From IMG/VR virus record IMGVR_UViG_3300042474_001569, positions 1-22,790 of that record: a stretch of 22,790 nt of DNA. One strand, written 5' to 3'. The position numbers and the translations under genes are program-made. This document shows, in pieces, positions 6,307-15,929 of the stretch; position 1 is the stretch's first letter; every line of letters begins with the position of its first letter. This DNA comes from a virus. The notes under the pieces were generated by a model. The model worked only from the letters and a program-made list of their open reading frames with translations. It searched no databases and had not been told where the DNA came from.

Positions 6307-8202
6307 TTATTCCGAGTGGATTACTTTATGCGGTGAACCGTAGCCAATACGATCCCCGTGAAATAATTCAACACGGTGAGGTCCTTTTGCATATTCTTTT
6401 GCTTTTTTTAGTATATTAGAGTGCGATCCGCGTACAACGGTCTTATTGCTCATTCCAACCTCATCATACGATCCGTCGGAATTTTTACGAGTTATAATTG
6501 CTGTCATGCTTTCATTTGTCATCACGGGAGCGGTAATAACTGGAACCTTTGGAAGAGCAGCAGATGAATTGGCTGGAGCTGGTTTATCGGCCGGGGTTAC
6601 CTTATCGCCGCCGTCCTGAGCTGCGCCTGGAACTCCATCTTTAATTTCGGTTTCATCATCGGTGTCATCCTTGGCTTTTTGAGTAACTGGATCCATAACC
6701 TCTGGACCAGCTTCTGCATCAGCCGCCGTACCTTCCTTCACAGGTGAGGATGGGAGGTCTGCAGTACGGATGCAATCGCTCTTCATTGCAATGAGCTGTT
6801 GGGTGAAGTTATGAATGTCCTCGTCGGTCTTAAAATCTTCACGGGCTCTTTCAAGAACACGGATGAAGGCAGGAACATCAAGATGGAGTTTATCTGCTGG
6901 ATTGTCTCCTGCATATTCATCATTCTCATTGACCATTGAAGCATCAGCCGCGGTACCTTCCTCAACTGATTTCTTTCCGTAGTGTTTCGCTGCTGCATCG
7001 CTTGCCTCTCTGTCTTGATCCGCCGAAACAAGATGAAGCATATGATGGTTGTACATACTCCGATGGAATTCATGATGGATATTAGCTGCGCCTCGAACCA
7101 TCGGATCGTGGTGTTGGTGAGCGTACACGCGGTAGTGTTCTGCTGCTAGATGGTGAGCATGCTGAGCATCCTCATGATGCGTGTCCGACCCGGACGAGTG
7201 AGCCAGGGCGGTTAACTCATTTGCTTTGGCGGAGAGTTTATGTGCATGAGGATCTCCTGCAACGTTCTCATTGACCATTGCAGCATAAGTTGCAGCAACA
7301 GAAGCAATGGTTTGTTCTCCGGTCATTTTTGGCTTCTCGTCTTCGTCTTCATCTTCGCCCTTGTTATCGGCGTCATGATCGCTTGGACCACCCATGTTGT
7401 CTGCATCGGGTTCTGGATGTTCTTCTTCGGAATCTTCTTCCTTTTCTTCGCCGCGAAGTTTCTTGAGGTCTTCACCATCAATTTTACCGTTCTTATTGAC
7501 ATCAAGCTTGTGTTGATTTCCGACAAGCTCTTCGCTACGGAGTTTCTTTAGATCCTCTCCGTCAATCTTGCCGTTCTTATTCACGTCAAGTTTATGCTGA
7601 TTGCCGACAAGCTTTTCGGCCATTTCTGCACGTTTGTCGCCTGGTGCTTCCGAAGCAGCAATTCTCTGCATTTCTTCTGCATCCTTTTCTTTTTCATCAT
7701 GATTGTCCATCTTGATCTCTTCTGCATCCTCTTCCTTGACTTCGGAAGGAACCTCATCGGATGCTTGCTTTGGTGCATTTTCTGCATCCATGTCCTGAAT
7801 CTTCTTTGACTTGTCATCATCCTCGGCATTCGTCGTCTCCTTCTGAGTATATTTGTCACGAAGTTTTGCGTGTTCTGCAGCTGTTGCCGTATGTCGAGCT
7901 GCTTCAGCATGATCACCAGCTTCCTTAGCTTTCTTAGCAAGAGCAATACTATCCAGGCGGTCATTCTCATGCTCTGCATAACGGCGACCATCATAAACTG
8001 AAGCCTCTGTAATACCGTATCTCTTACCATCAAATTTAACGATGGACTTATTGGCCTTACGGGCTTCAGTAACAGCTTGAACAAATGCTGGTACATTTTC
8101 TTCGGTAATGGAAGCTGGTACCCACTTTGGACGGGCAACTGCTTGTGGAGGATTTACCATCTTGCGATAGGCATCGGCGATAATCTGAGTGATTGTTGGC
8201 AT
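6307..8202 (-). CDS. Large acidic, His-rich repeat protein with EF-hand-like tandem, possible head precursor
   Basis: A 631-residue protein built from segments. Residues 1-16 (ITQIIADAYRKMV) resemble an N-terminal motif shared with other late genes, and 297-312 (TIASVAATYAAMVNEN) repeats it internally. A 'VPAF(V/I)' helix occurs twice (about 37-51 and 443-457). Two 28-residue units (198-253) contain DVNKNGKIDGED loops of the EF-hand/dockerin type with ligands D206, N208, N210 and D217. Long Asp/Glu tracts (about 250-292) and a His-rich helical domain (335-400) follow. Elements MVNEN...AGD and EGTAADA each occur twice. Several V/I-x-E sites (ITE, VTE, VKE, VNE, VEE) fit prohead-protease cleavage. 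Possible role: scaffold or internal head precursor. No membrane segment; function unproven. Confidence 0.8.
   Translation of the reverse strand: MPTITQIIADAYRKMVNPPQAVARPKWVPASITEENVPAFVQAVTEARKANKSIVKFDGKRYGITEASVYDGRRYAEHENDRLDSIALAKKAKEAGDHAEAARHTATAAEHAKLRDKYTQKETTNAEDDDKSKKIQDMDAENAPKQASDEVPSEVKEEDAEEIKMDNHDEKEKDAEEMQRIAASEAPGDKRAEMAEKLVGNQHKLDVNKNGKIDGEDLKKLRSEELVGNQHKLDVNKNGKIDGEDLKKLRGEEKEEDSEEEHPEPDADNMGGPSDHDADNKGEDEDEDEKPKMTGEQTIASVAATYAAMVNENVAGDPHAHKLSAKANELTALAHSSGSDTHHEDAQHAHHLAAEHYRVYAHQHHDPMVRGAANIHHEFHRSMYNHHMLHLVSADQDREASDAAAKHYGKKSVEEGTAADASMVNENDEYAGDNPADKLHLDVPAFIRVLERAREDFKTDEDIHNFTQQLIAMKSDCIRTADLPSSPVKEGTAADAEAGPEVMDPVTQKAKDDTDDETEIKDGVPGAAQDGGDKVTPADKPAPANSSAALPKVPVITAPVMTNESMTAIITRKNSDGSYDEVGMSNKTVVRGSHSNILKKAKEYAKGPHRVELFHGDRIGYGSPHKVIHSE
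6716..6962. repeat. Direct repeat inside the 631-aa gene
   Basis: A 22-bp element at about 6716-6737 and 6941-6962 (one mismatch) encodes the repeated EGTAADA peptide. Flanking DNA also repeats in part (the MVNEN segment), pointing to a past internal duplication. Confidence 0.65.
7444..7611 (-). repeat. Tandem 84-bp repeat encoding two EF-hand-like units
   Basis: Two adjacent 28-codon units (residues 198-225 and 226-253 of the 631-aa protein) that are identical in protein except near the end, where RSEE changes to RGEE, yet differ at many synonymous positions. The calcium-type loop reads D-V-N-K-N-G-K-I-D-G-E-D in both. Confidence 0.85.
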
Positions 8203-8232: not shown

Positions 8233-8664
8233 TTAGCAATTCCATTTGCGTAGGGCAAGAGCCTTACGTGTGGGTCTACCTTTTTTATCCTTCATGGGAC
8301 CTTTGACGCCGCTCATTCTGGCGCAAAAACTCTTACGGCGACCTGCAGCTTTGCTACCCGGTTTTAGCTTGCTCGGCTTTGTTGTGACGGGCGCCTTTAG
8401 ATTGCTGCCAGTCTCTCTATTGTATGCGTCACGACCTTTTTGAGTGAGACCACCAGTAGAACTTTTATGGCCTTTGGCGTCGATTGCAGCCTCGAAGAGT
8501 TCGGTATCATCTACCGATTCAAAATCTTCCCAAATGACTTCAGGATCTACGTTGTTCTTTTCGGCAAGGTCCATTACCATTTCCTCAATGGTATCAAACT
8601 GTTCATCAAGAACAATCATCTGTTTGTAGGATTCTGCGACGGATAAAATGCTGTTTGGATTCAT
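8233..8664 (-). CDS. DUF6321-like protein with possible capsid-targeting N terminus
   Basis: A 143-residue protein in two halves. The N-terminal half (ILSVAESYKQM, residues 6-16, then an acidic helical stretch to about 60) shares the SVAxxYxxM motif with other late genes here. The basic C-terminal half (about 69-143) contains GGLTQKGRDAYNRETGSNLKAPV, then KPGSKAAGRRKSFCARMSG and ends in RKWNC; I recognise this as the DUF6321 module found in phages and a few bacteria, function unknown. Its conserved Arg/Lys/Cys residues suggest binding to nucleic acid. A TATAAATA octamer lies 9 nt before the ATG, so it likely starts its own late transcript. Confidence 0.85.
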   Translation of the reverse strand: MNPNSILSVAESYKQMIVLDEQFDTIEEMVMDLAEKNNVDPEVIWEDFESVDDTELFEAAIDAKGHKSSTGGLTQKGRDAYNRETGSNLKAPVTTKPSKLKPGSKAAGRRKSFCARMSGVKGPMKDKKGRPTRKALALRKWNC

Positions 8665-8683: not shown

Positions 8684-8974
8684 TCATTTGCGGGCAAACC
8701 ACATACCGATGACGGTTGCACCGATTGCCGACATTCCGATCCAGAAGAATCGGTTAATAAAGGATAGACTTGATGCAGTCTCGCTGGTGTTTCTTTCTAC
8801 CTGGAGTAGGCGTTCCTCAAATTTGAGCATTTTCTCCATAAGGAACTTCTTGTCATTTTCAAGTTGAATCAGTTTTTCTTCGGCACGGGCCAATGAAATA
8901 ATTGCCTCGGCAAGCTTGTCAATCTTCGACTCAATCCGATCAAGTCGTTGTTGAGTTTCTACTGTTTTAGTCAT
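8684..8974 (-). CDS. Coiled-coil protein with C-terminal membrane anchor
   Basis: A 96-residue protein. Residues 5-68 show heptad-like leucine/isoleucine spacing among charged residues (RLDRIESKIDKLAEAI...), typical of a long coiled coil, and 74-93 (NRFFWIGMSAIGATVIGMWF) form one hydrophobic segment followed by RK. I recognise similar small proteins in T4-like cyanophages, without known function. Topology is probably a cytoplasmic coiled coil with a C-terminal tail anchor; a role in lysis or at the membrane during assembly is possible but not shown. The start overlaps the stop of the 614-aa gene as TAATG. Confidence 0.8.
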   Translation of the reverse strand: MTKTVETQQRLDRIESKIDKLAEAIISLARAEEKLIQLENDKKFLMEKMLKFEERLLQVERNTSETASSLSFINRFFWIGMSAIGATVIGMWFARK

Positions 8975-10818
8975 TATGATTTATTGGCAACGTTATATTT
9001 GACTTTTCTAAAGATGCTTTCATCTGAACTAATGGCTCCAATAAGGTTCTGGAGCAATTCAAAGAGAACATCTTTTTCCGCAGTTGTCGTAACCGGAATT
9101 TTGTTATCCAGTTTCTTAATCGCACGTGTAACAGTATTCAGTTTAAGGCGGTCAAGGAGGCCAAGACGGACAAGCATCTGCATACGGGCAAGTTCCTTTG
9201 CATCGTTATTAGAAGCAACATCCTCATTTACCTGTTCGGTGGCATATTCCTTCTCTGCTTCCGGTTGGTCGTCATAGAGGTCCTGGGTGTATTCAACATA
9301 GGAATGAACATCATCCATTTGATCACGCGCACTTGTAATTTTTGCTTGGATCCAGGCTTCCAGTTCATCCTCGTCATCCATTGAATCGGCAAGGTCCTTG
9401 GCCATATCGGCAATCTTAAGGAGCTGTCCCTTGGCCATGATGATTTCCTCTTGATCGTCGTCATGCTCGGCTTCCTCATTTACTGCACCTTCGCCAGCCT
9501 TCAGCTTGCTTACCATATCTAAATGGAATTTCTGAGCAGCTTTATCGCCGCGCTTTTCTGCATTGAGTGCCAATTGCGAATGACGAGTAATTTTAAGGTT
9601 TATTTTCTCATCGGCTGCTTCGGCTGCCATTTCTACGGCTTCCTTAAGCCCCTGTTTGACCAGGCGGTGTGCCATGAACTTGTGAAGTGTCGAAGAACGA
9701 TTATGGCTTTTTGCCATAGTCTCAAGTGGCTTCAATTCGCTTGCTTCACCGCCCGATTTAATATGGGCCGCAATCTTCTTTTCATACGCCGATGCAGCTT
9801 TTGCGTGTGCATCGGAAGCGCGGACGTGCGTTGAGATAGAAGGATTCAGTTTGGCTTTCTGAGAGAACTTAGCAGCCTTGACTCCGTGTACCGATTCATC
9901 AAGACTTTCCTCGGTGCCTTCTTTAACACCTTCTTTTGGTACGCAGTTTGGAACCTTTCTGCCATTCTTCATCTTCATTCCGATTGCTTCATAACCCTTC
10001 CAGCACGCATTTTCAAGGTCCTCTTCCATACGAGTGACGGGCTTCTTTGCATTTTCTGCATCCCGTTTCTTGGCAACTTCAAACTTAGCATCCATGTGTT
10101 TATGGAACGCATCGTTGTCGCCGGCAGCCTTTGCTGCTTGAGCGGCATCATGATGTTTGGCCATATCTTCCTCTGCATCTTCATGAATCTGCTGACTATC
10201 CCACATCGTAAACTTTCCATTTGGATGAGCCTTCTGATGCATTGCAATTGCCTTGTGGTCAGCGTCATTCTGATGTTTAGCCTTCACAACATACTCATGT
10301 TTCTTTTCACCCTCAGGATGTTCATGAGCAAATGTGACTTTAAAATTCTTTTCCTCAGTCACATTAGAACTCTGGCCCGGAGTTGCATTCTTGTACTTGT
10401 TAGTAAGTTCTGCTGTACCCAATTCTCCGGCGCCGAGTTCTTCTTTTATGGCACGAAGGTGTTCTTTTCCTAATTGAACAGAACCTGCATCATGGTCTAC
10501 TGTATATGTTTTTGCAGCTGTTTTATGTAAACCATGTTTGATTTCACCAATGCGACCCATCTTACCCTGAACATCTTTCGGTCCGCCAACAATCTTTACC
10601 TTATCTCCTACTTTATGAGCTTCATCTACATTTTCTTCTTTTACAAGATTCTTGTAGAGACCGCCGGGACCAGCAAGTTTTTTCTTGGCTGGCTTCTTCC
10701 ATTTAGAATCAAATTCTGATTTGGACATTGCACCTGCATTCACACGTGCCATATCCGATCTCTTTTTCTTTGAGACTTCTTCTAAGTTAGATTCGCGGAT
10801 TTGTTTGATGCTCTTCAT
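8974..10818 (-). CDS. Large multi-segment virion-type protein, possible protease-processed polyprotein
   Basis: A 614-residue protein made of modules seen separately in marine T4-like phage proteins. The N terminus MKSIKQIRE|S resembles the T4 capsid-targeting sequence. Residues about 68-125 look like a KOW/SH3 fold (KVGDKVKIVGG...GKMGRIGEI). A Cys module at about 270-295 (ACWKGYEAIGMK...PNCVP) is one I know from many phage proteins. Then come helical Ala/His/Lys-rich stretches, a helical module at 455-512 (MAKGQLLKIADMAKDLADSM..LEAWIQAKI), and a conserved C-terminal module (575-607). Hydrophobic-x-Glu sites sit at module boundaries: IRE, VKE, IKE, VTE, IHE, VKE, LKE, VNE and VNE. The start overlaps the upstream stop (ATGA). 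Confidence 0.85.
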   Translation of the reverse strand: MKSIKQIRESNLEEVSKKKRSDMARVNAGAMSKSEFDSKWKKPAKKKLAGPGGLYKNLVKEENVDEAHKVGDKVKIVGGPKDVQGKMGRIGEIKHGLHKTAAKTYTVDHDAGSVQLGKEHLRAIKEELGAGELGTAELTNKYKNATPGQSSNVTEEKNFKVTFAHEHPEGEKKHEYVVKAKHQNDADHKAIAMHQKAHPNGKFTMWDSQQIHEDAEEDMAKHHDAAQAAKAAGDNDAFHKHMDAKFEVAKKRDAENAKKPVTRMEEDLENACWKGYEAIGMKMKNGRKVPNCVPKEGVKEGTEESLDESVHGVKAAKFSQKAKLNPSISTHVRASDAHAKAASAYEKKIAAHIKSGGEASELKPLETMAKSHNRSSTLHKFMAHRLVKQGLKEAVEMAAEAADEKINLKITRHSQLALNAEKRGDKAAQKFHLDMVSKLKAGEGAVNEEAEHDDDQEEIIMAKGQLLKIADMAKDLADSMDDEDELEAWIQAKITSARDQMDDVHSYVEYTQDLYDDQPEAEKEYATEQVNEDVASNNDAKELARMQMLVRLGLLDRLKLNTVTRAIKKLDNKIPVTTTAEKDVLFELLQNLIGAISSDESIFRKVKYNVANKS

Positions 10819-11720
10819 GATTGTTTACGGAATTTGCTTAAAGGAATACCCTCGCTTGATGGTACTCTAATTTTAGGTTGATAGATTGGAAATGCTTTTT
10901 CTTCTAGTTTCTGGTCTTCCTGAATGATGACCTTTTTCTCGACAGGCTCCACGGCATTCAGCCACTTACGGACCTTCTTGCCATCGGTAAGTTCGACAAT
11001 AAGATAATTGGATCCGCAATGAGTAATCTTGCCAACCTCTTCGGATTCCTTAATGACAACATCGTCGCCAATCTCAAAGAGTTCTCCAGACACATATGCT
11101 TCTCTACGGTCGCCAACGGATTCCAACTGGATGTGTTTACGAAAGTTGCGGGATTCCTTGAGCCCAAGACCATTACGGACGGCATTAAAATAATCCTCGC
11201 ATTCGGCAAAGTCGGCTGGAAGCCCCTTTGAAAAGGTCTCAAGGTCATTTGCAATCGCAGCAGCACGTAATTTTGATTCCGAAAGGATATTGTTGCATTC
11301 TGTTGCCGCAACAACCTTGACGCCACCTTTAAAGGTAAATGCAAAACCATTATAACTATCCAGGAGTGCTTGGTACTCAACCACTCTGTCGGCAGGAGCA
11401 ACCATGGTGGCACCAGTGAATCCTTGTTCAAACAGTTTTGTGCAGATGGCAAGAGGACCATCAACATCATCGCTCATAATGTTCCGAGCATATTTCGGAG
11501 ACATTTTGCGCATCCACTTCACCTTTTCTTCAAGCTTGAGGGGATTGTTCTTTTGGTCATCGACATGAGAAGTATAGATGCGATATGTTATACCGTTCGC
11601 AATCTTTGCTACATTCTCAATGAGGTCTTCACTCTCAATCGTGGGCGGATTAAATTTGCCAAAGGTAAAAACAACCTCCTTGGTAACCGACTCACTTACA
11701 AATTGTATAAAGGACTTCAT
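10815..11720 (-). CDS. Nucleotidyltransferase-like protein with degenerate HxGH motif and KOW-like tail
   Basis: A 301-residue protein. Residues 1-11 (MKSFIQFVSE|S) match the T4 capsid-targeting pattern. Residues 16-160 form a HIGH-type adenylyl/cytidylyltransferase domain: GKFNPPT (21-27), SH..D.K.NPL (51-61), a DR...E..LL..YNG block (111-125) and the C-terminal SESKLRAAA (147-155), all aligning with the plus-strand paralogue at 14600-15220. The catalytic TxGH is changed to TIES (27-30), so activity is doubtful. Residues about 214-258 (FEIGDDVVIKESEEVGKI...RKWLNAVEP) are a KOW/SH3-like module common in phage proteins. The gene is 2 nt after the 150-aa gene and overlaps the 614-aa gene. Confidence 0.85.
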   Translation of the reverse strand: MKSFIQFVSESVTKEVVFTFGKFNPPTIESEDLIENVAKIANGITYRIYTSHVDDQKNNPLKLEEKVKWMRKMSPKYARNIMSDDVDGPLAICTKLFEQGFTGATMVAPADRVVEYQALLDSYNGFAFTFKGGVKVVAATECNNILSESKLRAAAIANDLETFSKGLPADFAECEDYFNAVRNGLGLKESRNFRKHIQLESVGDRREAYVSGELFEIGDDVVIKESEEVGKITHCGSNYLIVELTDGKKVRKWLNAVEPVEKKVIIQEDQKLEEKAFPIYQPKIRVPSSEGIPLSKFRKQS

Positions 11721-11722
11721 TA

Positions 11723-12175
11723 TTACTTAGAAGGCTTCTTTTTCAGACGGTTCCGCTTTTTTTCACGATCCTTATCCGCTAAACCGTGGAGAGTTTTAAT
11801 GATCGCTAGCTCTCGGCTTCTTCCAACACTTACGTTATCCGTTTCTTCTTCGAGACCAAAGTGTTTTGCAACATGTCTATCGCCGTGGCGGTAGCGAAGA
11901 ATATCTCCGATCATTGCTCTTTTACCACCAACTTCGGCTGGAGTGTATTTTGAATGAACCCTACCTAGTGTTCCCTGATGAATTTTATGGACTTCATCTG
12001 TGGATTTGCTCTTTAGGCTCTCGTGGTCCTTTTTAATGTCCGCCTGTCTACGGGTATCAAGAGCATCATTCTCTTCATCCATAGGACGGCGCTTACGCTT
12101 CATCGCGTTAAGGTCCTGCTGTTCGGATTCGCCGCCGGTATATTGTACTGGAGTAAAGTCTTTAAAACTGAGCAT
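11723..12175 (-). CDS. Hypothetical basic protein, first gene of the late block
   Basis: A 150-residue charged protein starting MLSFKDFTPVQYTGG, whose first seven residues match the targeting-like start of its neighbours (MLSFKQF), although no clean x-x-Glu cleavage site follows directly. The middle has 'MKRKRRPMDEEND', then 'HKIHQGTLGRVHSKYTPAEVGGKRAMIGDILRYRHGDRHVAKHFGLEEE', and the tail ends in a basic stretch. I do not recognise a family. It begins the transcription unit that runs down to the 614-aa gene, served by a TATAAATA octamer 61 nt upstream of the ATG. Confidence 0.8.
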   Translation of the reverse strand: MLSFKDFTPVQYTGGESEQQDLNAMKRKRRPMDEENDALDTRRQADIKKDHESLKSKSTDEVHKIHQGTLGRVHSKYTPAEVGGKRAMIGDILRYRHGDRHVAKHFGLEEETDNVSVGRSRELAIIKTLHGLADKDREKKRNRLKKKPSK

Positions 12176-12236
12176 GATAGTTTCGAGTTTCCCATAGGTA
12201 ACAATGGAATTACTGTTACCCGTTTATGTAGAATAC

Positions 12237-12244
12237 TATTTATA
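12237..12244 (-). promoter_or_regulatory. Late promoter octamer TATAAATA
   Basis: Perfect minus-strand TATAAATA with 61 nt to the ATG at 12175. It drives the late block. Unlike the other octamers it leaves room for a normal leader. Confidence 0.7.
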
Positions 12245-12265
12245 CATTGTCCATGCTTTCGGTTT

Positions 12266-12273
12266 TATAAATA
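12266..12273 (+). promoter_or_regulatory. Late promoter octamer TATAAATA of the lipoprotein gene
   Basis: Plus-strand TATAAATA, 7 nt before the ATG at 12281 (TATAAATA-TACCTGC-ATG). Divergent from the octamer at 12237-12244. Confidence 0.7.
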
Positions 12274-12280
12274 TACCTGC

Positions 12281-12586
12281 ATGAAATACACAACACTTAT
12301 CACCCTTGCAGTTATCACTGCTCTTCTCACCGGTTGCGGAACTGTTGATTCGGCGTACCAATCCACAAAGGGTATTGGTTCTGCTGCTATCGGCGGCGTA
12401 GGCAATATCGTCGGCAATGGCGCGTCGGATGCTTCCAAGACTCTTGGAGTCGCTTCTGAAGCCACCGGCAAAGTTGTTTCTGGCGCGGGTAGAGTTGTTG
12501 GCGGCGGTCTCGATCTTGTTGGCGGCGTCGTAAAAGGCACCTCCGATATTATTGCTCCTTCGACACCAGCTCCAAAGCAGTACTAA
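12281..12586 (+). CDS. Small Gly-rich lipoprotein, moron-like
   Basis: A 101-residue protein with a lipoprotein signal peptide: MK, a hydrophobic core (residues 3-15) and the lipobox LTGC with C19 as the lipidated cysteine. The mature part is Gly/Ala/Ser-rich with repeated GG and VGG pairs and no charged core, ending in a Pro-rich tail. It should be anchored in a host membrane. Phage lipoproteins of this size can block superinfection by masking receptors (for example T5 Llp), or act in lysis; which applies here is not shown by the sequence. It is a self-contained unit, with its own late octamer and a strong terminator, opposite in strand to its neighbours on both sides. Start chosen at 12281 because the longer in-frame reading lacks a signal peptide and overlaps the promoters. 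Confidence 0.85.
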   Translation: MKYTTLITLAVITALLTGCGTVDSAYQSTKGIGSAAIGGVGNIVGNGASDASKTLGVASEATGKVVSGAGRVVGGGLDLVGGVVKGTSDIIAPSTPAPKQY

Positions 12587-12613
12587 TCGTTTAGGTAAAT
12601 CTTAACAACATTG

Positions 12614-12645
12614 ACCCCGGGAGCAATCTCGGGGTTATTTGTTTT
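12614..12645 (+). terminator. Rho-independent terminator after the lipoprotein gene
   Basis: Nine-base-pair stem ACCCCGGGA (12614-12622) with TCTCGGGGT (12627-12635), one G-T pair, a GCAA tetraloop and a T-rich tail (TATTTGTTTT, 12636-12645). It lies 28 nt past the stop codon and overlaps the 3' end of the convergent glycosyltransferase gene. Confidence 0.85.
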
Positions 12646-13342
12646 CGTAAAAGCCGCGGTACAATTCGGTTTCTTCGGCTCCGATATTCTTTCTGAGGAA
12701 TTCAAGTGCTGGGTCTCGGGTACCGTCGATACGATTGTGTCCGTTACCGTAACCACCACTGACTCCATACATACCTTTGATTCCGATAAGAGTTCTCTCG
12801 AAATCTTTGGGTTCATGGATCTTTTTACTTGCCTTCTTTATGTTCCAGAGGCGAACATCGATGAATGGGCAGGTATCCCTGAGGATGTTGGGCATCTCGT
12901 GGAATAGATTACGATTAAACGAGCTCTGACAGAGACTGCAATGAGTCATATTGCTATGGATCGACCACGTTCTTTTAAGCACATTATAATAAAGAGCGCG
13001 ACCTTCTCCGACTAGATCGTAGGTGCCCGAATTAAACCAGCCTATTGTTTTTTCAAGATAGTCCTTGGAATACCAGTCATCGTCCTCGATAATGACCACG
13101 GCATCTCCCGTAATCATTTCCTGGTGTTCGAATAGATTCCGCATCTTTAACACCAAACTCTGTTTTCCCTTGGTCTCGGGCGTATGGATATGCTGCTGAC
13201 CAAGTGTGCAATTGACGGGCATTGTGCTATCGTCCAAGACAATCCATTGATGATAAGGCACCGTCTGTCGAGCCATAAATCTTTCACAGAGTTTAAATGC
13301 TTCTTGACGGTTGCATGTGGGAGTCACAAGAGTAAGTTTCAT
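12635..13342 (-). CDS. GT-A fold glycosyltransferase (family 2-like)
   Basis: A 235-residue protein starting MKLTLVTPTCNRQEAF with the nucleotide-sugar-binding beta strand typical of GT-A enzymes, then WIVLDDS (33-39) and VVIIEDDDWYS (82-92), whose DxD-type acidic cluster (86-89) would hold the metal and sugar diphosphate. It transfers a sugar from an NDP donor to an unknown acceptor; in phages the targets are DNA bases, virion proteins or host surface glycans. The lack of a membrane segment implies a cytoplasmic enzyme. It is a single-gene minus-strand unit with a late-type octamer (AATAAATA) 7 nt before the start, so a late role such as decorating the virion is plausible. Confidence 0.9.
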   Translation of the reverse strand: MKLTLVTPTCNRQEAFKLCERFMARQTVPYHQWIVLDDSTMPVNCTLGQQHIHTPETKGKQSLVLKMRNLFEHQEMITGDAVVIIEDDDWYSKDYLEKTIGWFNSGTYDLVGEGRALYYNVLKRTWSIHSNMTHCSLCQSSFNRNLFHEMPNILRDTCPFIDVRLWNIKKASKKIHEPKDFERTLIGIKGMYGVSGGYGNGHNRIDGTRDPALEFLRKNIGAEETELYRGFYENK

Positions 13343-13349
13343 AAATGGT

Positions 13350-13357
13350 TATTTATT
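13350..13357 (-). promoter_or_regulatory. Late promoter octamer AATAAATA of the glycosyltransferase
   Basis: Minus-strand AATAAATA, 7 nt before the ATG at 13342. It shares base 13357 with the divergent octamer on the other strand. Confidence 0.5.
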
Positions 13358-13364
13358 ATAAATA
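13357..13364 (+). promoter_or_regulatory. Late promoter octamer TATAAATA of the ligase-like gene
   Basis: Plus-strand TATAAATA, 8 nt before the ATG at 13373 (TATAAATA-GAACATCC-ATG). Confidence 0.7.
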
Positions 13365-13372
13365 GAACATCC

Positions 13373-14596
13373 ATGTTTGAACTACTTTCACTTCAATCTG
13401 TTGCCGATACGTACATCGATATGTTGTCGGAAGCAACGAATCCCAATCAGCTGACTCATATTCATCATCCGGAAGACCGCCCTTTAATGCACGGCTCGCA
13501 GGGATTTGAACATGCACACGCAGCTCTCATGCATGCTCATGAGCATATGAAGGCGAAGAAACATAGTTCCGACCTTACCATGAAGTATGATGGTTCTCCT
13601 TCATTGGTCTTCGGACATCATCCAGTCACCAAGAAATTCTTTGTTGCGACCAAGTCGGCTTTCAATAAGAATCCAAAATTAAACTATTCTGATTCCGATA
13701 TTGAAAAGCATCATGGTCATGCTCCGGGCTTGGTCGGTAAGTTGAAACATGCTCTGAAGCATCTTCCAAAGGTTGCTCCAAAGCAAGGCGTCTATCAAGG
13801 CGACCTCATGCACACCCGTGAAGATCATAAACTGCATGAAGCAGTCTCATTCACTCCCAACACTATTACCTACACGGCACGCGGAGATGAAGAAAAGAAG
13901 GTAAAGCAATCTCATGTCGGTATCGTGGTGCATCAACAGTACCATCCGCATCCGAATAAGCCGGGCGTCGAGCATATGTCGGTAAGCCCGCATCCCGACA
14001 CTCACAATTTTAAACAGCATCCCGACGTTCATCTCAAGACTGCCGAACACGATACCAGCAAGATTAATTACGGCAAGTCCGATCAAAGTGCGTTCCATAA
14101 GCACATGAATGCAGCCAAGGCGATTCATACCAAGCACGGCGCATCAATGTACAAAGCAACCGCACGTCACCAGGGCGAGGCTGGACATCTTTCAACATAC
14201 ATTAATCAGACCGTTCGTACCGGTGAATCTCCAAATGCACAGGGCTTCCAAAAGCATCTTATGGGTCATCATGCCAAACTGGCGTCAAAGGTAAAGACTC
14301 CGGCTGCAGTTGCTCGCCATCACGCAACCGGTGCCGAACACGTCTCCCACGTTGCAAAGCATGCGGGCCATTACAACAATCTTCTTTCAATGCACAGTCA
14401 TCTAGCCGCCGCAAAGAATACCCTTGTAAAGAACCTTGAGACCCATGAAGGCGGTCTGGAACATCATATCGGAGCGGCAAAATCTAAGCCCGAAGGTTTT
14501 GTGATTAACCACAAATTCAAGGGTAAGACTCATCCGACCAAACTGGTGAATCGTGCCGAATTTGCAAAAGCAAACTTTGCCAAAGTAAGAGGATAA
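13373..14596 (+). CDS. Ligase-superfamily nucleotidyltransferase (DUF6267-like), possibly packaged in the head
   Basis: A 407-residue, very His-rich protein. The covalent nucleotidyltransferase motifs are in order: motif I KYDG with nucleophile K71, a TKSAF strand (93-97), YQGDLM (141-146) as motif III, SHVGIVVH (180-187), and near the C terminus PEGFVIN (motif IV) and TKLVNR (motif V). A long His/Ala-rich helical insert (about 230-370) separates the halves. I recognise it as the DUF6267 family of marine T4-like phages; the substrate is unknown. The N terminus (SVADTYIDMLSE|A, residues 9-21) resembles a capsid-targeting peptide with a protease site. The ATG at 13373 is chosen over an upstream in-frame one at 13184 because the latter reads through the promoter and the divergent gene. 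Operon with the next gene. Confidence 0.88.
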   Translation: MFELLSLQSVADTYIDMLSEATNPNQLTHIHHPEDRPLMHGSQGFEHAHAALMHAHEHMKAKKHSSDLTMKYDGSPSLVFGHHPVTKKFFVATKSAFNKNPKLNYSDSDIEKHHGHAPGLVGKLKHALKHLPKVAPKQGVYQGDLMHTREDHKLHEAVSFTPNTITYTARGDEEKKVKQSHVGIVVHQQYHPHPNKPGVEHMSVSPHPDTHNFKQHPDVHLKTAEHDTSKINYGKSDQSAFHKHMNAAKAIHTKHGASMYKATARHQGEAGHLSTYINQTVRTGESPNAQGFQKHLMGHHAKLASKVKTPAAVARHHATGAEHVSHVAKHAGHYNNLLSMHSHLAAAKNTLVKNLETHEGGLEHHIGAAKSKPEGFVINHKFKGKTHPTKLVNRAEFAKANFAKVRG

Positions 14597-14599
14597 TCC

Positions 14600-15220
14600 A
14601 TGCTATCATTCAAACAATTTGTCACTGAAGCCGCGGCAGCCGATTCGCACCATGTGTTGGCATTCGGTCGTATGAATCCTATTACCAACGGGCACGAAAC
14701 CGTGGTGAATAAGGTCCATGAAATTGCAAAGAAGCATAATGCAGGACACACCGTTGTGGTGTCTCACTCGCAGGATGCAAAGAAGAATCCTCTCACAGGC
14801 GAACAGAAAGTAAAGCACGCCAAACATGCCTTTCCTGGTACCAATGTTGTTGCTTCCAGTAAGGAAAGCCCAACGATTCTGCATCACGCGGCTCATCTAT
14901 CCGACAAAGGCGTGAAGCATCTACACGTGATTGTGGGTTCCGACCGCGCGAAGGAGATGCACGGTTTACTCCACAAGTACAATGGAAAGCCATCGGCTGG
15001 TGGACACAAGGGTTACAATTTCAAATCAATTACCGTCCACTCTGCGGGACAACGTGATCCGGATGCAGAAGGTGTGAGCGGCATTTCAGCAAGCAAGATG
15101 CGCGCTCATGCTGCAGAGGGTAACAAGAAAGCCTTCCATGCAGGAGCACCTTCAAAAATGTCGGCTGCTCATAAGGACGCCATGTACCATGATGTCCGTA
15201 AGGGAATGGGCGTTGGTTAA
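14600..15220 (+). CDS. HxGH adenylyl/cytidylyltransferase with capsid-targeting-like N terminus
   Basis: A 206-residue protein. Residues 1-11 (MLSFKQFVTE|A) closely resemble the T4 capsid-targeting sequence (MKTYQEFIAE|A). From residue 19 it is a HIGH-family nucleotidyltransferase: FGRMNPITNGHE with T29/G31/H32, the block SHSQDAKKNPL (55-65), GSDRAKEM..LLHKYNG (113-129) and the ATP-binding ISASKMRAHA (162-171). Relatives include NMN adenylyltransferases (making NAD) and phosphopantetheine/glycerol-phosphate enzymes; the substrate here is unknown. It follows the ligase-like gene by 3 nt and has a good Shine-Dalgarno (AGAGG, about 9 nt before the ATG), unlike most starts in the window. It ends 1 nt from the convergent gene. 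Confidence 0.9.
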   Translation: MLSFKQFVTEAAAADSHHVLAFGRMNPITNGHETVVNKVHEIAKKHNAGHTVVVSHSQDAKKNPLTGEQKVKHAKHAFPGTNVVASSKESPTILHHAAHLSDKGVKHLHVIVGSDRAKEMHGLLHKYNGKPSAGGHKGYNFKSITVHSAGQRDPDAEGVSGISASKMRAHAAEGNKKAFHAGAPSKMSAAHKDAMYHDVRKGMGVG

Positions 15221-15221
15221 A

Positions 15222-15929
15222 TTACTTTTTTGATATAGAACCTAATATCTTTAGGAATTCTTTATCATCTAAGTTTTTATTAGATCTCTTTAGACTTCCC
15301 TGTACGGCTTGAATTGCAGTAGTAAATCTATAGTTGTAAATAGGCATTGAACCGCCTCGTTTCAATCTAATTCTTAAACGCAGATTCAGATCGAATCTAG
15401 GTACCTTAAGATCGGCAACATCTTCGCCCATAAAATATAGACCGAAACCTGCACCTATTTGAATGTAATATGTTTTCTTACTGTTGTAGTATTTTTCAAC
15501 AGAATTTTTTGGTATGTTTACAAAAACATCTTTAAAGTATTTGTAGTCGTGAGCAACATCGGAGTCTGAATAGTATTCCGTATCTACTGTAAATTTTTTA
15601 GGTGGACCGTATTGACCCCATGCTTCATTTACCATTTTAGGTACACCAATCGCTTCCAGAAACTCTCTCATCTGAACAGCAGAATCTGTTTTTGCTCCGC
15701 CGAGAATCCACTTTTTATTTTTTAGATCATAATCTAATGAGCCCTGTCCAAAATCAACTTTGGTATCTAATTTGACTTCTACCTTATGGTCATAACCCCT
15801 GATTCTCAATTCAGCATCGGGTGCATTAGAATCCGAGCCTGCAGGTTTAAAATTTGCTCTTTGAGCACCAGCAGACTGTAAATTTTTATTTAAAACTTTT
15901 TCGTATTCTAAGCCTTTATTGTCGGACAT
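15222..15929 (-). CDS. Putative PD-(D/E)xK nuclease-like protein, AT-rich
   Basis: A 235-residue protein beginning MSDNKGLEYEKVLNKNLQ. Residues about 36-52 read SNAPDAELRIRGYDHKVEVKLD, an arrangement of PD, a hydrophobic hairpin and E-V-K that fits the PD-(D/E)xK nuclease core, followed by 'DFGQGSLDYD'. I recognise similar late-gene proteins in T4-like cyanophages. The nuclease role is an inference from the motif only. The gene is clearly more AT-rich than its neighbours (many AAA, TTA and AGA codons), hinting at separate origin. It has its own TATAAATA octamer 5 nt upstream of the ATG and converges on the adenylyltransferase gene. Confidence 0.8.
   Translation of the reverse strand: MSDNKGLEYEKVLNKNLQSAGAQRANFKPAGSDSNAPDAELRIRGYDHKVEVKLDTKVDFGQGSLDYDLKNKKWILGGAKTDSAVQMREFLEAIGVPKMVNEAWGQYGPPKKFTVDTEYYSDSDVAHDYKYFKDVFVNIPKNSVEKYYNSKKTYYIQIGAGFGLYFMGEDVADLKVPRFDLNLRLRIRLKRGGSMPIYNYRFTTAIQAVQGSLKRSNKNLDDKEFLKILGSISKK

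What the first reader, a model, noticed from the sequence alone, without database searches (positions are those of the whole stretch)
10815..15220. Enzymes tagged with T4-like capsid-targeting N termini
T4 internal head proteins carry an N-terminal targeting sequence (MKTYQEFIAE|A) removed by the prohead protease after hydrophobic-x-Glu. Here MLSFKQFVTE|A (14600-15220), MKSFIQFVSE|S (10815-11720), MKSIKQIRE|S (8974-10818) and, in part, MLSFKDF (11723-12175) share the pattern in different proteins with unrelated bodies. An adenylyltransferase-type enzyme with this tag would be packed into the head and injected with the DNA. T4 Alt is a known packaged enzyme, but a packaged nucleotidyltransferase set is, to my knowledge, not described.
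Basis: partly seen in the sequence, partly recalled or inferred. Interest (0 to 1): 0.82.

Follow-up and report, generated by a model that had tools for sequence, protein, structure and literature searches.

The report
Phage enzymes tagged for head packaging
A T4-like phage puts the same short address label on the front of several proteins, among them likely enzymes, probably so that they are packed inside the virus head, and the same label sits on many unrelated proteins of related phages.

Summary
The tag is real and, by sequence evidence, very likely a T4-type capsid-targeting sequence. Two window proteins match it exactly (14600-15220, 10815-11720); they are paralogs, not unrelated bodies. 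Two match in part, and the DUF6267 protein at 13373 carries a variant.

A pattern from the T4 tag finds five T4 genes, four of them head proteins. In a collection scan, 124 of 125 matches open a gene, with bodies in 35 groups; with Glu changed to Lys, 3 of 20 do. In cyanophage S-CREM2, 5 of 6 tagged proteins are in the published virion proteome (p=0.003; pattern written after seeing those N-termini). In three cyanophages the cytidylyltransferase/NMNAT found in virions is tagged; in five other named phages the family is untagged.

So packaged nucleotidyltransferases are in print; I found no paper linking them to a tag. The 14600 protein has an NMN-adenylyltransferase-like fold; DUF6267 models as an RNA-ligase-type nucleotidyltransferase. 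Cleavage, packaging in this phage and injection are inferred.

The parts
14600..15220 (+). NMN-adenylyltransferase-like protein (cytidyltransferase family, 206 aa) with intact GRMNPITNGH and ISASKMR motifs
   Evidence: phrog_3041 E 1.2e-60, PF01467 just over its cut-off, TIGR00125 just over its cut-off, Foldseek best match a NaMN adenylyltransferase, E 6.9e-5
14600..14629 (+). capsid-targeting tag MLSFKQFVTE, predicted cut before Ala 11
   Evidence: strict pattern; M1, F4 and E10 invariant in the 22 orthologs aligned, of 80 loci; 73 of 80 loci have a strict, one-residue-shorter or near tag at an ATG start
13373..14596 (+). DUF6267 protein (407 aa), RNA-ligase-type nucleotidyltransferase fold; start chosen by comparison with relatives
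   Evidence: PF19782 E 1.3e-88; model pLDDT 89; VIA-align first 21 rows all RNA or tRNA ligases, Z up to 9.1; invariant KxDG and EGxV
13373..13432 (+). variant tag, YIDMLSE|A at residues 14-21, in a low-confidence N-terminal stretch
   Evidence: aligns with MKSFSTFITE|A and MKSFKSFITE|A of relatives; residues 1-30 pLDDT about 50
10815..11720 (-). paralog of the 14600 protein (301 aa) with a decayed active-site motif (PPTIES in place of PxTxGH)
   Evidence: phrog_395 E 1e-43; motif comparison
11691..11720 (-). capsid-targeting tag MKSFIQFVSE, predicted cut before Ser 11
   Evidence: strict pattern; closest homologs keep MKSF.QFVSE, G002 has Asp for Glu
8974..10818 (-). 614 aa modular protein of unknown function
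   Evidence: only unknown-function PHROG matches; homologs vary in length and modules
10792..10818 (-). shortened tag MKSIKQIRE (9 residues)
   Evidence: MK[SNT][IL]K.[IL]R followed by E, or by S in two, in most listed homologs that align from the start; MKNLRALRKE is an exception (by eye); not a strict match
11723..12175 (-). 150 aa protein of unknown function, starting MLSFKDF
   Evidence: M.SFKDF..V.Y..G..E.QD kept in homologs that align from the start (by eye); no family match

Best explanation
The shared N-terminus is a capsid-targeting sequence of the T4 kind. It binds the inside of the prohead (scaffold core), carries the protein into the head, and is cut off after Glu (10 in the standard tag) by a T4-type prohead protease, so that the protein stays in the mature head. 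In the window it marks an NMN-adenylyltransferase-like enzyme, its paralog with a decayed active site, and probably an RNA-ligase-fold protein (DUF6267). Shown: the tag, its conservation, its presence on many unrelated bodies, and tagged homologs in published virion proteomes. Inferred: targeting, cleavage, presence in this phage's virions, and release into the next host with the DNA.
For: T4 positive control: the pattern gives 5 hits in 267 gene models: ipII, ipIII, 24 (annotated 'cleaved by gp21'), alt (annotated as in the capsid and entering the host) and 61.1, unknown.

Collection scan: 124 of 125 matches of MK[ST/R]FxxF.xEA open a gene, in 120 stretches, and the scan stopped at its limit; with Lys at position 10 the whole collection gives 20 stretches, 3 of 20 at a gene start. 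Tag codons vary synonymously (Glu GAA 100, GAG 25), so selection is on the protein.

Given M..[FY]..[FYILMW][ILVMF] at the N-terminus, position 10 is Glu in 14 of 22; internally Glu in 163 of 1616.

S-CREM2: 5 of 6 strict hits (of 219 proteins) are among the 52 virion proteins, Fisher one-sided p 0.0032. Virion cytidylyltransferases of S-CREM2, S-SCSM1 and S-SZBM1 all have the tag (MKNFSSFLTE|A, MKSFLQFLKE|A, MRFRQFIIE|A). The untagged DUF6267 proteins of S-CREM2 (gp87) and S-SZBM1 (_141) are not in their virion lists.

73 of 80 loci of the 14600 family have a strict (35), one-residue-shorter (36) or near (2) tag. T4-type protease and gp23 in 11 of 16 records searched. Capsid proteins of four relatives have similar Glu sites by eye, such as SLHE|A and AITE|T.
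Against: The looser pattern does not predict virion presence in S-CREM2 (6 of 16, p 0.15), and I wrote the strict pattern after seeing those N-termini. In S-SCSM1 one of the two strict hits (SSCSM1_30) is not labelled a virion protein. Of ten named phages whose cytidyltransferase start I read, four are tagged (S-CREM2, S-SCSM1, S-SZBM1, P-SSM4), DLP6 is partial (MKNIKDILE|A), and five are untagged: HTVC008M, S-PM2 and three jumbo phages, although all of these ten have a Peptidase_S77 protease. 27 of 68 distinct complete DUF6267 proteins have no tag-like segment by my search pattern. The window is a fragment, and its closest relative G001, also a fragment, showed no protease or capsid gene. No peptide evidence of cleavage was available. 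Virion proteomes may include co-purified proteins, as the S-SCSM1 authors say.
Confidence: 0.8

Rival explanations
1. The N-terminus is a head- or scaffold-docking helix that is not cut; the Glu is part of the docking helix, not a protease site.
For: In the model of the 14600 protein residues 4-13 form a helix that runs through Glu 10. The residue after Glu is not always small: Gln in MKFRDFLRE|Q, Lys in MRFKEYLTE|K.
Against: T4 proteins with the same pattern include gp24, annotated as cleaved by gp21; Glu at position 10 is strongly favoured over Lys; similar Glu sites lie near the N-terminus of the capsid proteins of relatives (by eye).
Confidence: 0.15
2. The tag is an inherited N-terminus of one old gene family that spread with its genes and has no targeting role.
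For: 57 of 121 bodies form one group around the cytidyltransferase, and the two exact window cases are paralogs.
Against: The bodies form 35 groups without BLAST similarity at E 1e-4. DUF6267 bodies occur with and without it. The tag stays while the active-site motif of the 10815 clade decays. T4 head proteins match the same pattern.
Confidence: 0.06
3. The proteins act only inside the infected cell late in infection and are found in virion preparations as contamination.
For: The authors of the S-SCSM1 proteome raise this for their NMNAT; the peptide counts of the cytidylyltransferases are low (3 in S-CREM2, 2 in S-SZBM1).
Against: Found in two CsCl-purified preparations (S-SCSM1, S-SZBM1) and in S-CREM2, whose purification I did not see; in S-CREM2 tagged proteins are enriched among those found (5 of 6 against 52 of 219).
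Confidence: 0.1

Closest known systems
T4 internal proteins IPI, IPII, IPIII and the capsid-targeting sequence (Mullaney and Black 1996, cited in PMC9958956 and PMC9391042; itself not read)
   Same: Ten-residue N-terminal peptide M-x-x-Phe/Tyr-x-x-Phe-hydrophobic-x-Glu followed by a small residue, on otherwise different proteins; T4-type protease in relatives.
   Different: Here the bodies are enzyme-like (nucleotidyltransferase, RNA-ligase fold, and others in relatives); targeting and cleavage have not been shown in these phages.
T4 Alt ADP-ribosyltransferase
   Same: An enzyme in the head with an N-terminus that fits the pattern.
   Different: Different chemistry; none of the window proteins scanned matched it.
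Virion-associated NMNAT / cytidylyltransferase of cyanophages (S-CREM2, S-SCSM1, S-SZBM1, S-CBWM1)
   Same: Same protein family, detected in virions; in the three whose sequence I read, the same tag (S-CBWM1 was not read).
   Different: Those papers propose carriage in the virion but I saw no mention of a tag in the parts that I read; the phage of the window is a different one, known to me only from this fragment and near-identical IMG/VR records.
P1 DarB capsid signal and SPN3US propeptides (PMC9024508, PMC5694885; passages)
   Same: N-terminal signals or propeptides of head-packaged proteins.
   Different: DarB: a signal within the first 30 residues. SPN3US: mostly much longer propeptides cut at A-X-E.
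Head-packaged ADP-ribosyltransferases and polyvalent proteins (PMC9503650; passages)
   Same: Idea that enzymes are packed in phage heads and delivered early.
   Different: There inferred from fusions and gene neighbourhood, not from a short tag, in the passages that I read.

Membership tests
T4-type capsid-targeting sequence | N-terminal 10-residue pattern of T4 internal proteins | tested here: met
   two window proteins match exactly; pattern checked on T4
T4-type capsid-targeting sequence | directs the protein into the prohead | not testable with these tools
   tagged relatives occur in published virion proteomes; no targeting experiment
T4-type capsid-targeting sequence | removed by a gp21-type protease after Glu | not testable with these tools
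   no N-terminal peptide data; Peptidase_S77 in relatives
T4-type capsid-targeting sequence | gp21-type protease and gp23 capsid protein in the same phage | tested here: inconclusive
   present in relatives G002-G008 (G002 has an 85% identical 14600 protein); G001 and the window are fragments, and none was found in G001
NMN/NaMN adenylyltransferase | HxGH-type nucleotidyltransferase fold and motifs | tested here: met
   14600 protein: NPITNGH and ISASKMR, Foldseek best match NaMN adenylyltransferase E 6.9e-5
NMN/NaMN adenylyltransferase | intact GH of the motif in the 10815 paralog | tested here: not met
   PPTIES in the window copy; AH or HH in several relatives
NMN/NaMN adenylyltransferase | uses NMN or NaMN as substrate | not testable with these tools
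   NCBIfam nadR match far below its cut-off (16 against 341 bits)
ATP-dependent RNA ligase superfamily (DUF6267) | nucleotidyltransferase fold | tested here: met
   VIA-align: 48 of the 50 entries shown are titled as RNA, tRNA or DNA ligases and two are end-joining complexes; best Z 9.1, rmsd 3.7 over 185 residues. Foldseek alone gave no match at E 0.001
ATP-dependent RNA ligase superfamily (DUF6267) | motif I KxDG and motif IV EGxV conserved | tested here: met
   K71, D73, G74, E374, G375, V377 invariant in 35 sequences; the motif names are recalled
ATP-dependent RNA ligase superfamily (DUF6267) | seals RNA or DNA ends | not testable with these tools
   no assay

The most novel reading that the evidence does not exclude
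T4-like phages use one short N-terminal address code to load a large, exchangeable set of enzymes into their heads. In this phage group the set is a first-response kit made of an NMN adenylyltransferase (rebuilding NAD), an RNA-ligase-fold protein, and in a near-identical relative a phosphatase-like protein, elsewhere a KptA-like protein. It would be delivered with the DNA to undo host defences that deplete NAD or cut tRNA before any phage gene is expressed.
Probability: 0.2. Interest if true: 0.92.

Novelty: new variant of a known kind. Interest (0 to 1): 0.75.

Why it matters
If the tag works as in T4, the head cargo of many T4-like phages known only from sequence can be read from a ten-residue pattern, including proteins that may be injected. 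It gives a likely explanation for the puzzling enzymes found in cyanophage virions, gives DUF6267 a probable ligase-type function, and makes the question 'what do phages bring into the cell besides DNA' directly testable by deleting or swapping the tag.

Tried and rejected
Rejected: chance (register, internal-Met and Glu-to-Lys controls); a DNA- or RNA-level motif (synonymous codons vary); a simple rule 'protease present means tag present' (HTVC008M, S-PM2 and three jumbo phages have Peptidase_S77 and untagged cytidyltransferases).

Led nowhere: the HMM search of DUF6267 against solved structures gave no usable match, and Foldseek alone gave none at E 0.001; only the VIA-align second look was clear. 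S-CREM1 has a virion proteome, but its protein list is not in the passages that I read. Pfam named few of the cargo bodies: of 20 tagged proteins scanned, six matched a family above its cut-off. The phosphatase-like (HAD) call for the G001 protein rests on a DxDxT motif read by eye; Pfam, NCBIfam and PHROGs did not support it. Literature: 'capsid targeting' with 'cyanophage' gave one paper, a T4 review; the other searches listed mainly T4, P1, giant-phage and general papers, and none of those whose passages I read links virion enzymes to such a tag in these phages. 'DUF6267' is in no paper held.

Of the 80 loci, seven have no tag at an ATG start; one of these (L031) has it behind a non-ATG start, L084 has an altered one, four are fusions and L080 has none. 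The DUF6267 tag count used 68 distinct complete proteins of 113 hits; a few of its 41 positives (L036, L234, L025) are doubtful by eye. The 121 bodies clustered are the tagged proteins of at least 50 residues among 125 matches; bodies without BLAST similarity may still be related, so 35 groups is an upper estimate of independence.
Full report
What is there. The window is a whole virus record of 22,790 bases from a T4-superfamily phage. All four N-termini of the finding are present. Two, at 14600-15220 (MLSFKQFVTE|A) and 10815-11720 (MKSFIQFVSE|S), match a strict pattern M-x-x-[FYIL]-x-x-[FYILMW]-[ILVMF]-x-E that takes its positions from the T4 tag quoted in the finding; no other candidate start in the 35 gene models does. 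The other two are partial. The two exact cases are paralogs, so 'unrelated bodies' is wrong for them. A fifth protein, DUF6267 at 13373-14596, has a variant tag (YIDMLSE|A) that aligns with the standard tag of relatives.

Is it more than chance? Across seven genomes and 1295 proteins the pattern is at the N-terminus 18 times and 2.3 times on average in shifted registers. In T4 it gives five genes of 267 models: ipII, ipIII, 24, alt and 61.1. The first four are annotated head proteins, and gp24 is annotated as cleaved by gp21. With Lys in place of Glu the complete scan gave 20 stretches, 3 of 20 at a gene start. Selection is on the peptide, since codons vary. Of the 80 loci of the 14600 family, 73 have a strict, one-residue-shorter or near tag. 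In the 22 that I aligned, M1, F4 and E10 are invariant while the linker behind varies and has gaps.

Does the tag mark virion proteins? The S-CREM2 virion proteome (PMC10665884, Table 3, section read) lists 52 proteins; the record has 219. Of six strict hits five are in it: SAM hydrolase gp6, gp13, kinase gp14 (annotated start codon for Val), gp136, and cytidylyltransferase gp154 (p 0.0032). The sixth, gp175 (55 aa), is not. The Cas9-like gp12, also listed, has the same motif (LRFASFMAE|A) behind 16 extra residues. I wrote the pattern after seeing these N-termini, so the p value is not that of a blind test; the T4 control used the pattern unchanged afterwards. A looser pattern fails (6 of 16, p 0.15). 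In S-SCSM1 (PMC9602691, passages; labels in its record) the virion NMNAT is tagged and a second strict hit is not labelled. In S-SZBM1 (PMC9146016, section 16 and table passage) the virion cytidylyltransferase is tagged (MRFRQFIIE|A, one residue shorter); its neighbour DUF6267 is untagged and not listed. S-CREM2 gp87, an untagged relative of DUF6267, is not listed either. So three of three virion cytidylyltransferases whose start I could read are tagged, and neither of two untagged DUF6267 proteins is in a virion list. These are small numbers.

Cargo. The 121 tagged bodies from the collection scan fall into 35 groups by BLAST. The largest (57) is the cytidyltransferase/NMNAT group. Others include DUF6267, a DUF6321-like protein (by eye), a lytic-transglycosylase domain, an acetyltransferase, DUF5661, a member of a 5'-3' deoxyribonucleotidase family and a KptA-like protein (weak, below the family cut-off). 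In G001, a 66.5 kb record nearly identical to the window (98.7% in the flanks), one more tagged gene (MKSFLEFLAE|A, with a DxDxT motif by eye) sits between DUF6267 and the 14600 gene; the window lacks it. This looks like gain or loss of cargo behind a constant tag.

What the enzymes are. The 14600 protein models well (pLDDT 89), and Foldseek's best match is a NaMN adenylyltransferase (E 6.9e-5); its HxGH-type motif is intact. In the 10815 clade that motif has decayed (PPTIES in the window and its nearest relatives, AH or HH in others) while the tag is kept, with Asp in place of Glu in G002. DUF6267 models at pLDDT 89 with a low-confidence N-terminus. Foldseek alone found nothing at E 0.001, although ligases were among its top rows. 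VIA-align showed 50 entries, 48 titled as RNA, tRNA or DNA ligases and two as end-joining complexes; best are Naegleria RNA ligase (Z 9.1) and T4 RNA ligase 2 (Z 8.3). The tool's note warns that a Z under 8 can be a common arrangement, but the consistency of the rows and the invariant KxDG and EGxV support the assignment.

How it most likely works. The tag brings the protein to the prohead core, a T4-type protease cuts after Glu, and the body remains in the head. Relatives have the protease and gp23 (11 of 16 records), and four relatives' capsid proteins have comparable Glu sites by eye. The window is a fragment of a genome that in relatives exceeds 120 kb. Injection into the next cell is inferred from T4 Alt and internal proteins (PMC9391042, passages). 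What the enzymes do there is open. NAD rebuilding against NAD-depleting defence is suggested by the NARP pathway, seen only in a search listing with the start of an abstract and otherwise recalled. RNA end repair is suggested by the ligase fold.

What is known and what is new. The T4 tag and the packaging of foreign proteins by it are T4 knowledge (PMC9958956, passages). Enzymes in phage heads are known or proposed (PMC9503650, passages), and nucleotidyltransferases in cyanophage virions are in print. I found no paper that connects these enzymes to a capsid-targeting tag (searches; the library lacks most subscription journals). I therefore file it as a new variant of a known kind.

Limits. Of ten named phages whose cytidyltransferase start I read, four are tagged, one is partial and five are untagged although all ten have a Peptidase_S77 protease; 27 of 68 DUF6267 proteins have no tag-like segment. 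Packaging would thus be a property of the tagged forms, not of these families. No N-terminal peptide data were available.

Noticed in passing
L294 (T4 NC_000866 18966-19130, - strand): T4 gene 61.1 (54 aa, unknown) starts MKTFKEFIKE|D, the only one of the five strict T4 hits not annotated as a head protein: a candidate T4 head cargo.
   Followed up: partly
L180 6676-8097, L119 48819-50000, L098 7704-12846: A short module (DGHG.W...VAKT..G.LKF) follows the tag in many NMNAT-type proteins and also occurs in the S-CREM2 kinase gp14 and the Cas9-like gp12: a possible second shared header part.
   Followed up: partly
window 6307-8202, 8233-8664, 13373-14596: A second shared N-terminal pattern, roughly [IV]A[DENS].Y..M[ILV], on proteins with different bodies; similar N-termini are seen in G001 and G002.
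   Followed up: no
[quoted passage not shown]
   Followed up: no
window 10815-11720: The cytidyltransferase paralog has lost its active-site motif but keeps the tag, so it may have a structural or decoy role in the head.
   Followed up: partly
window 14594-15929 against G001 24703-26854: Nearly identical phages differ here by a tagged gene and by different neighbours (235 aa against 302 aa): a site of gene exchange.
   Followed up: partly
window 6307-8202: 631 aa protein with two identical DVNKNGKIDGEDLKKLR repeats that match EF-hand and dockerin models.
   Followed up: no
L160 3736-4149: Tagged protein with weak similarity to KptA-type RNA 2'-phosphotransferase, next to a tagged acetyltransferase.
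   Followed up: partly
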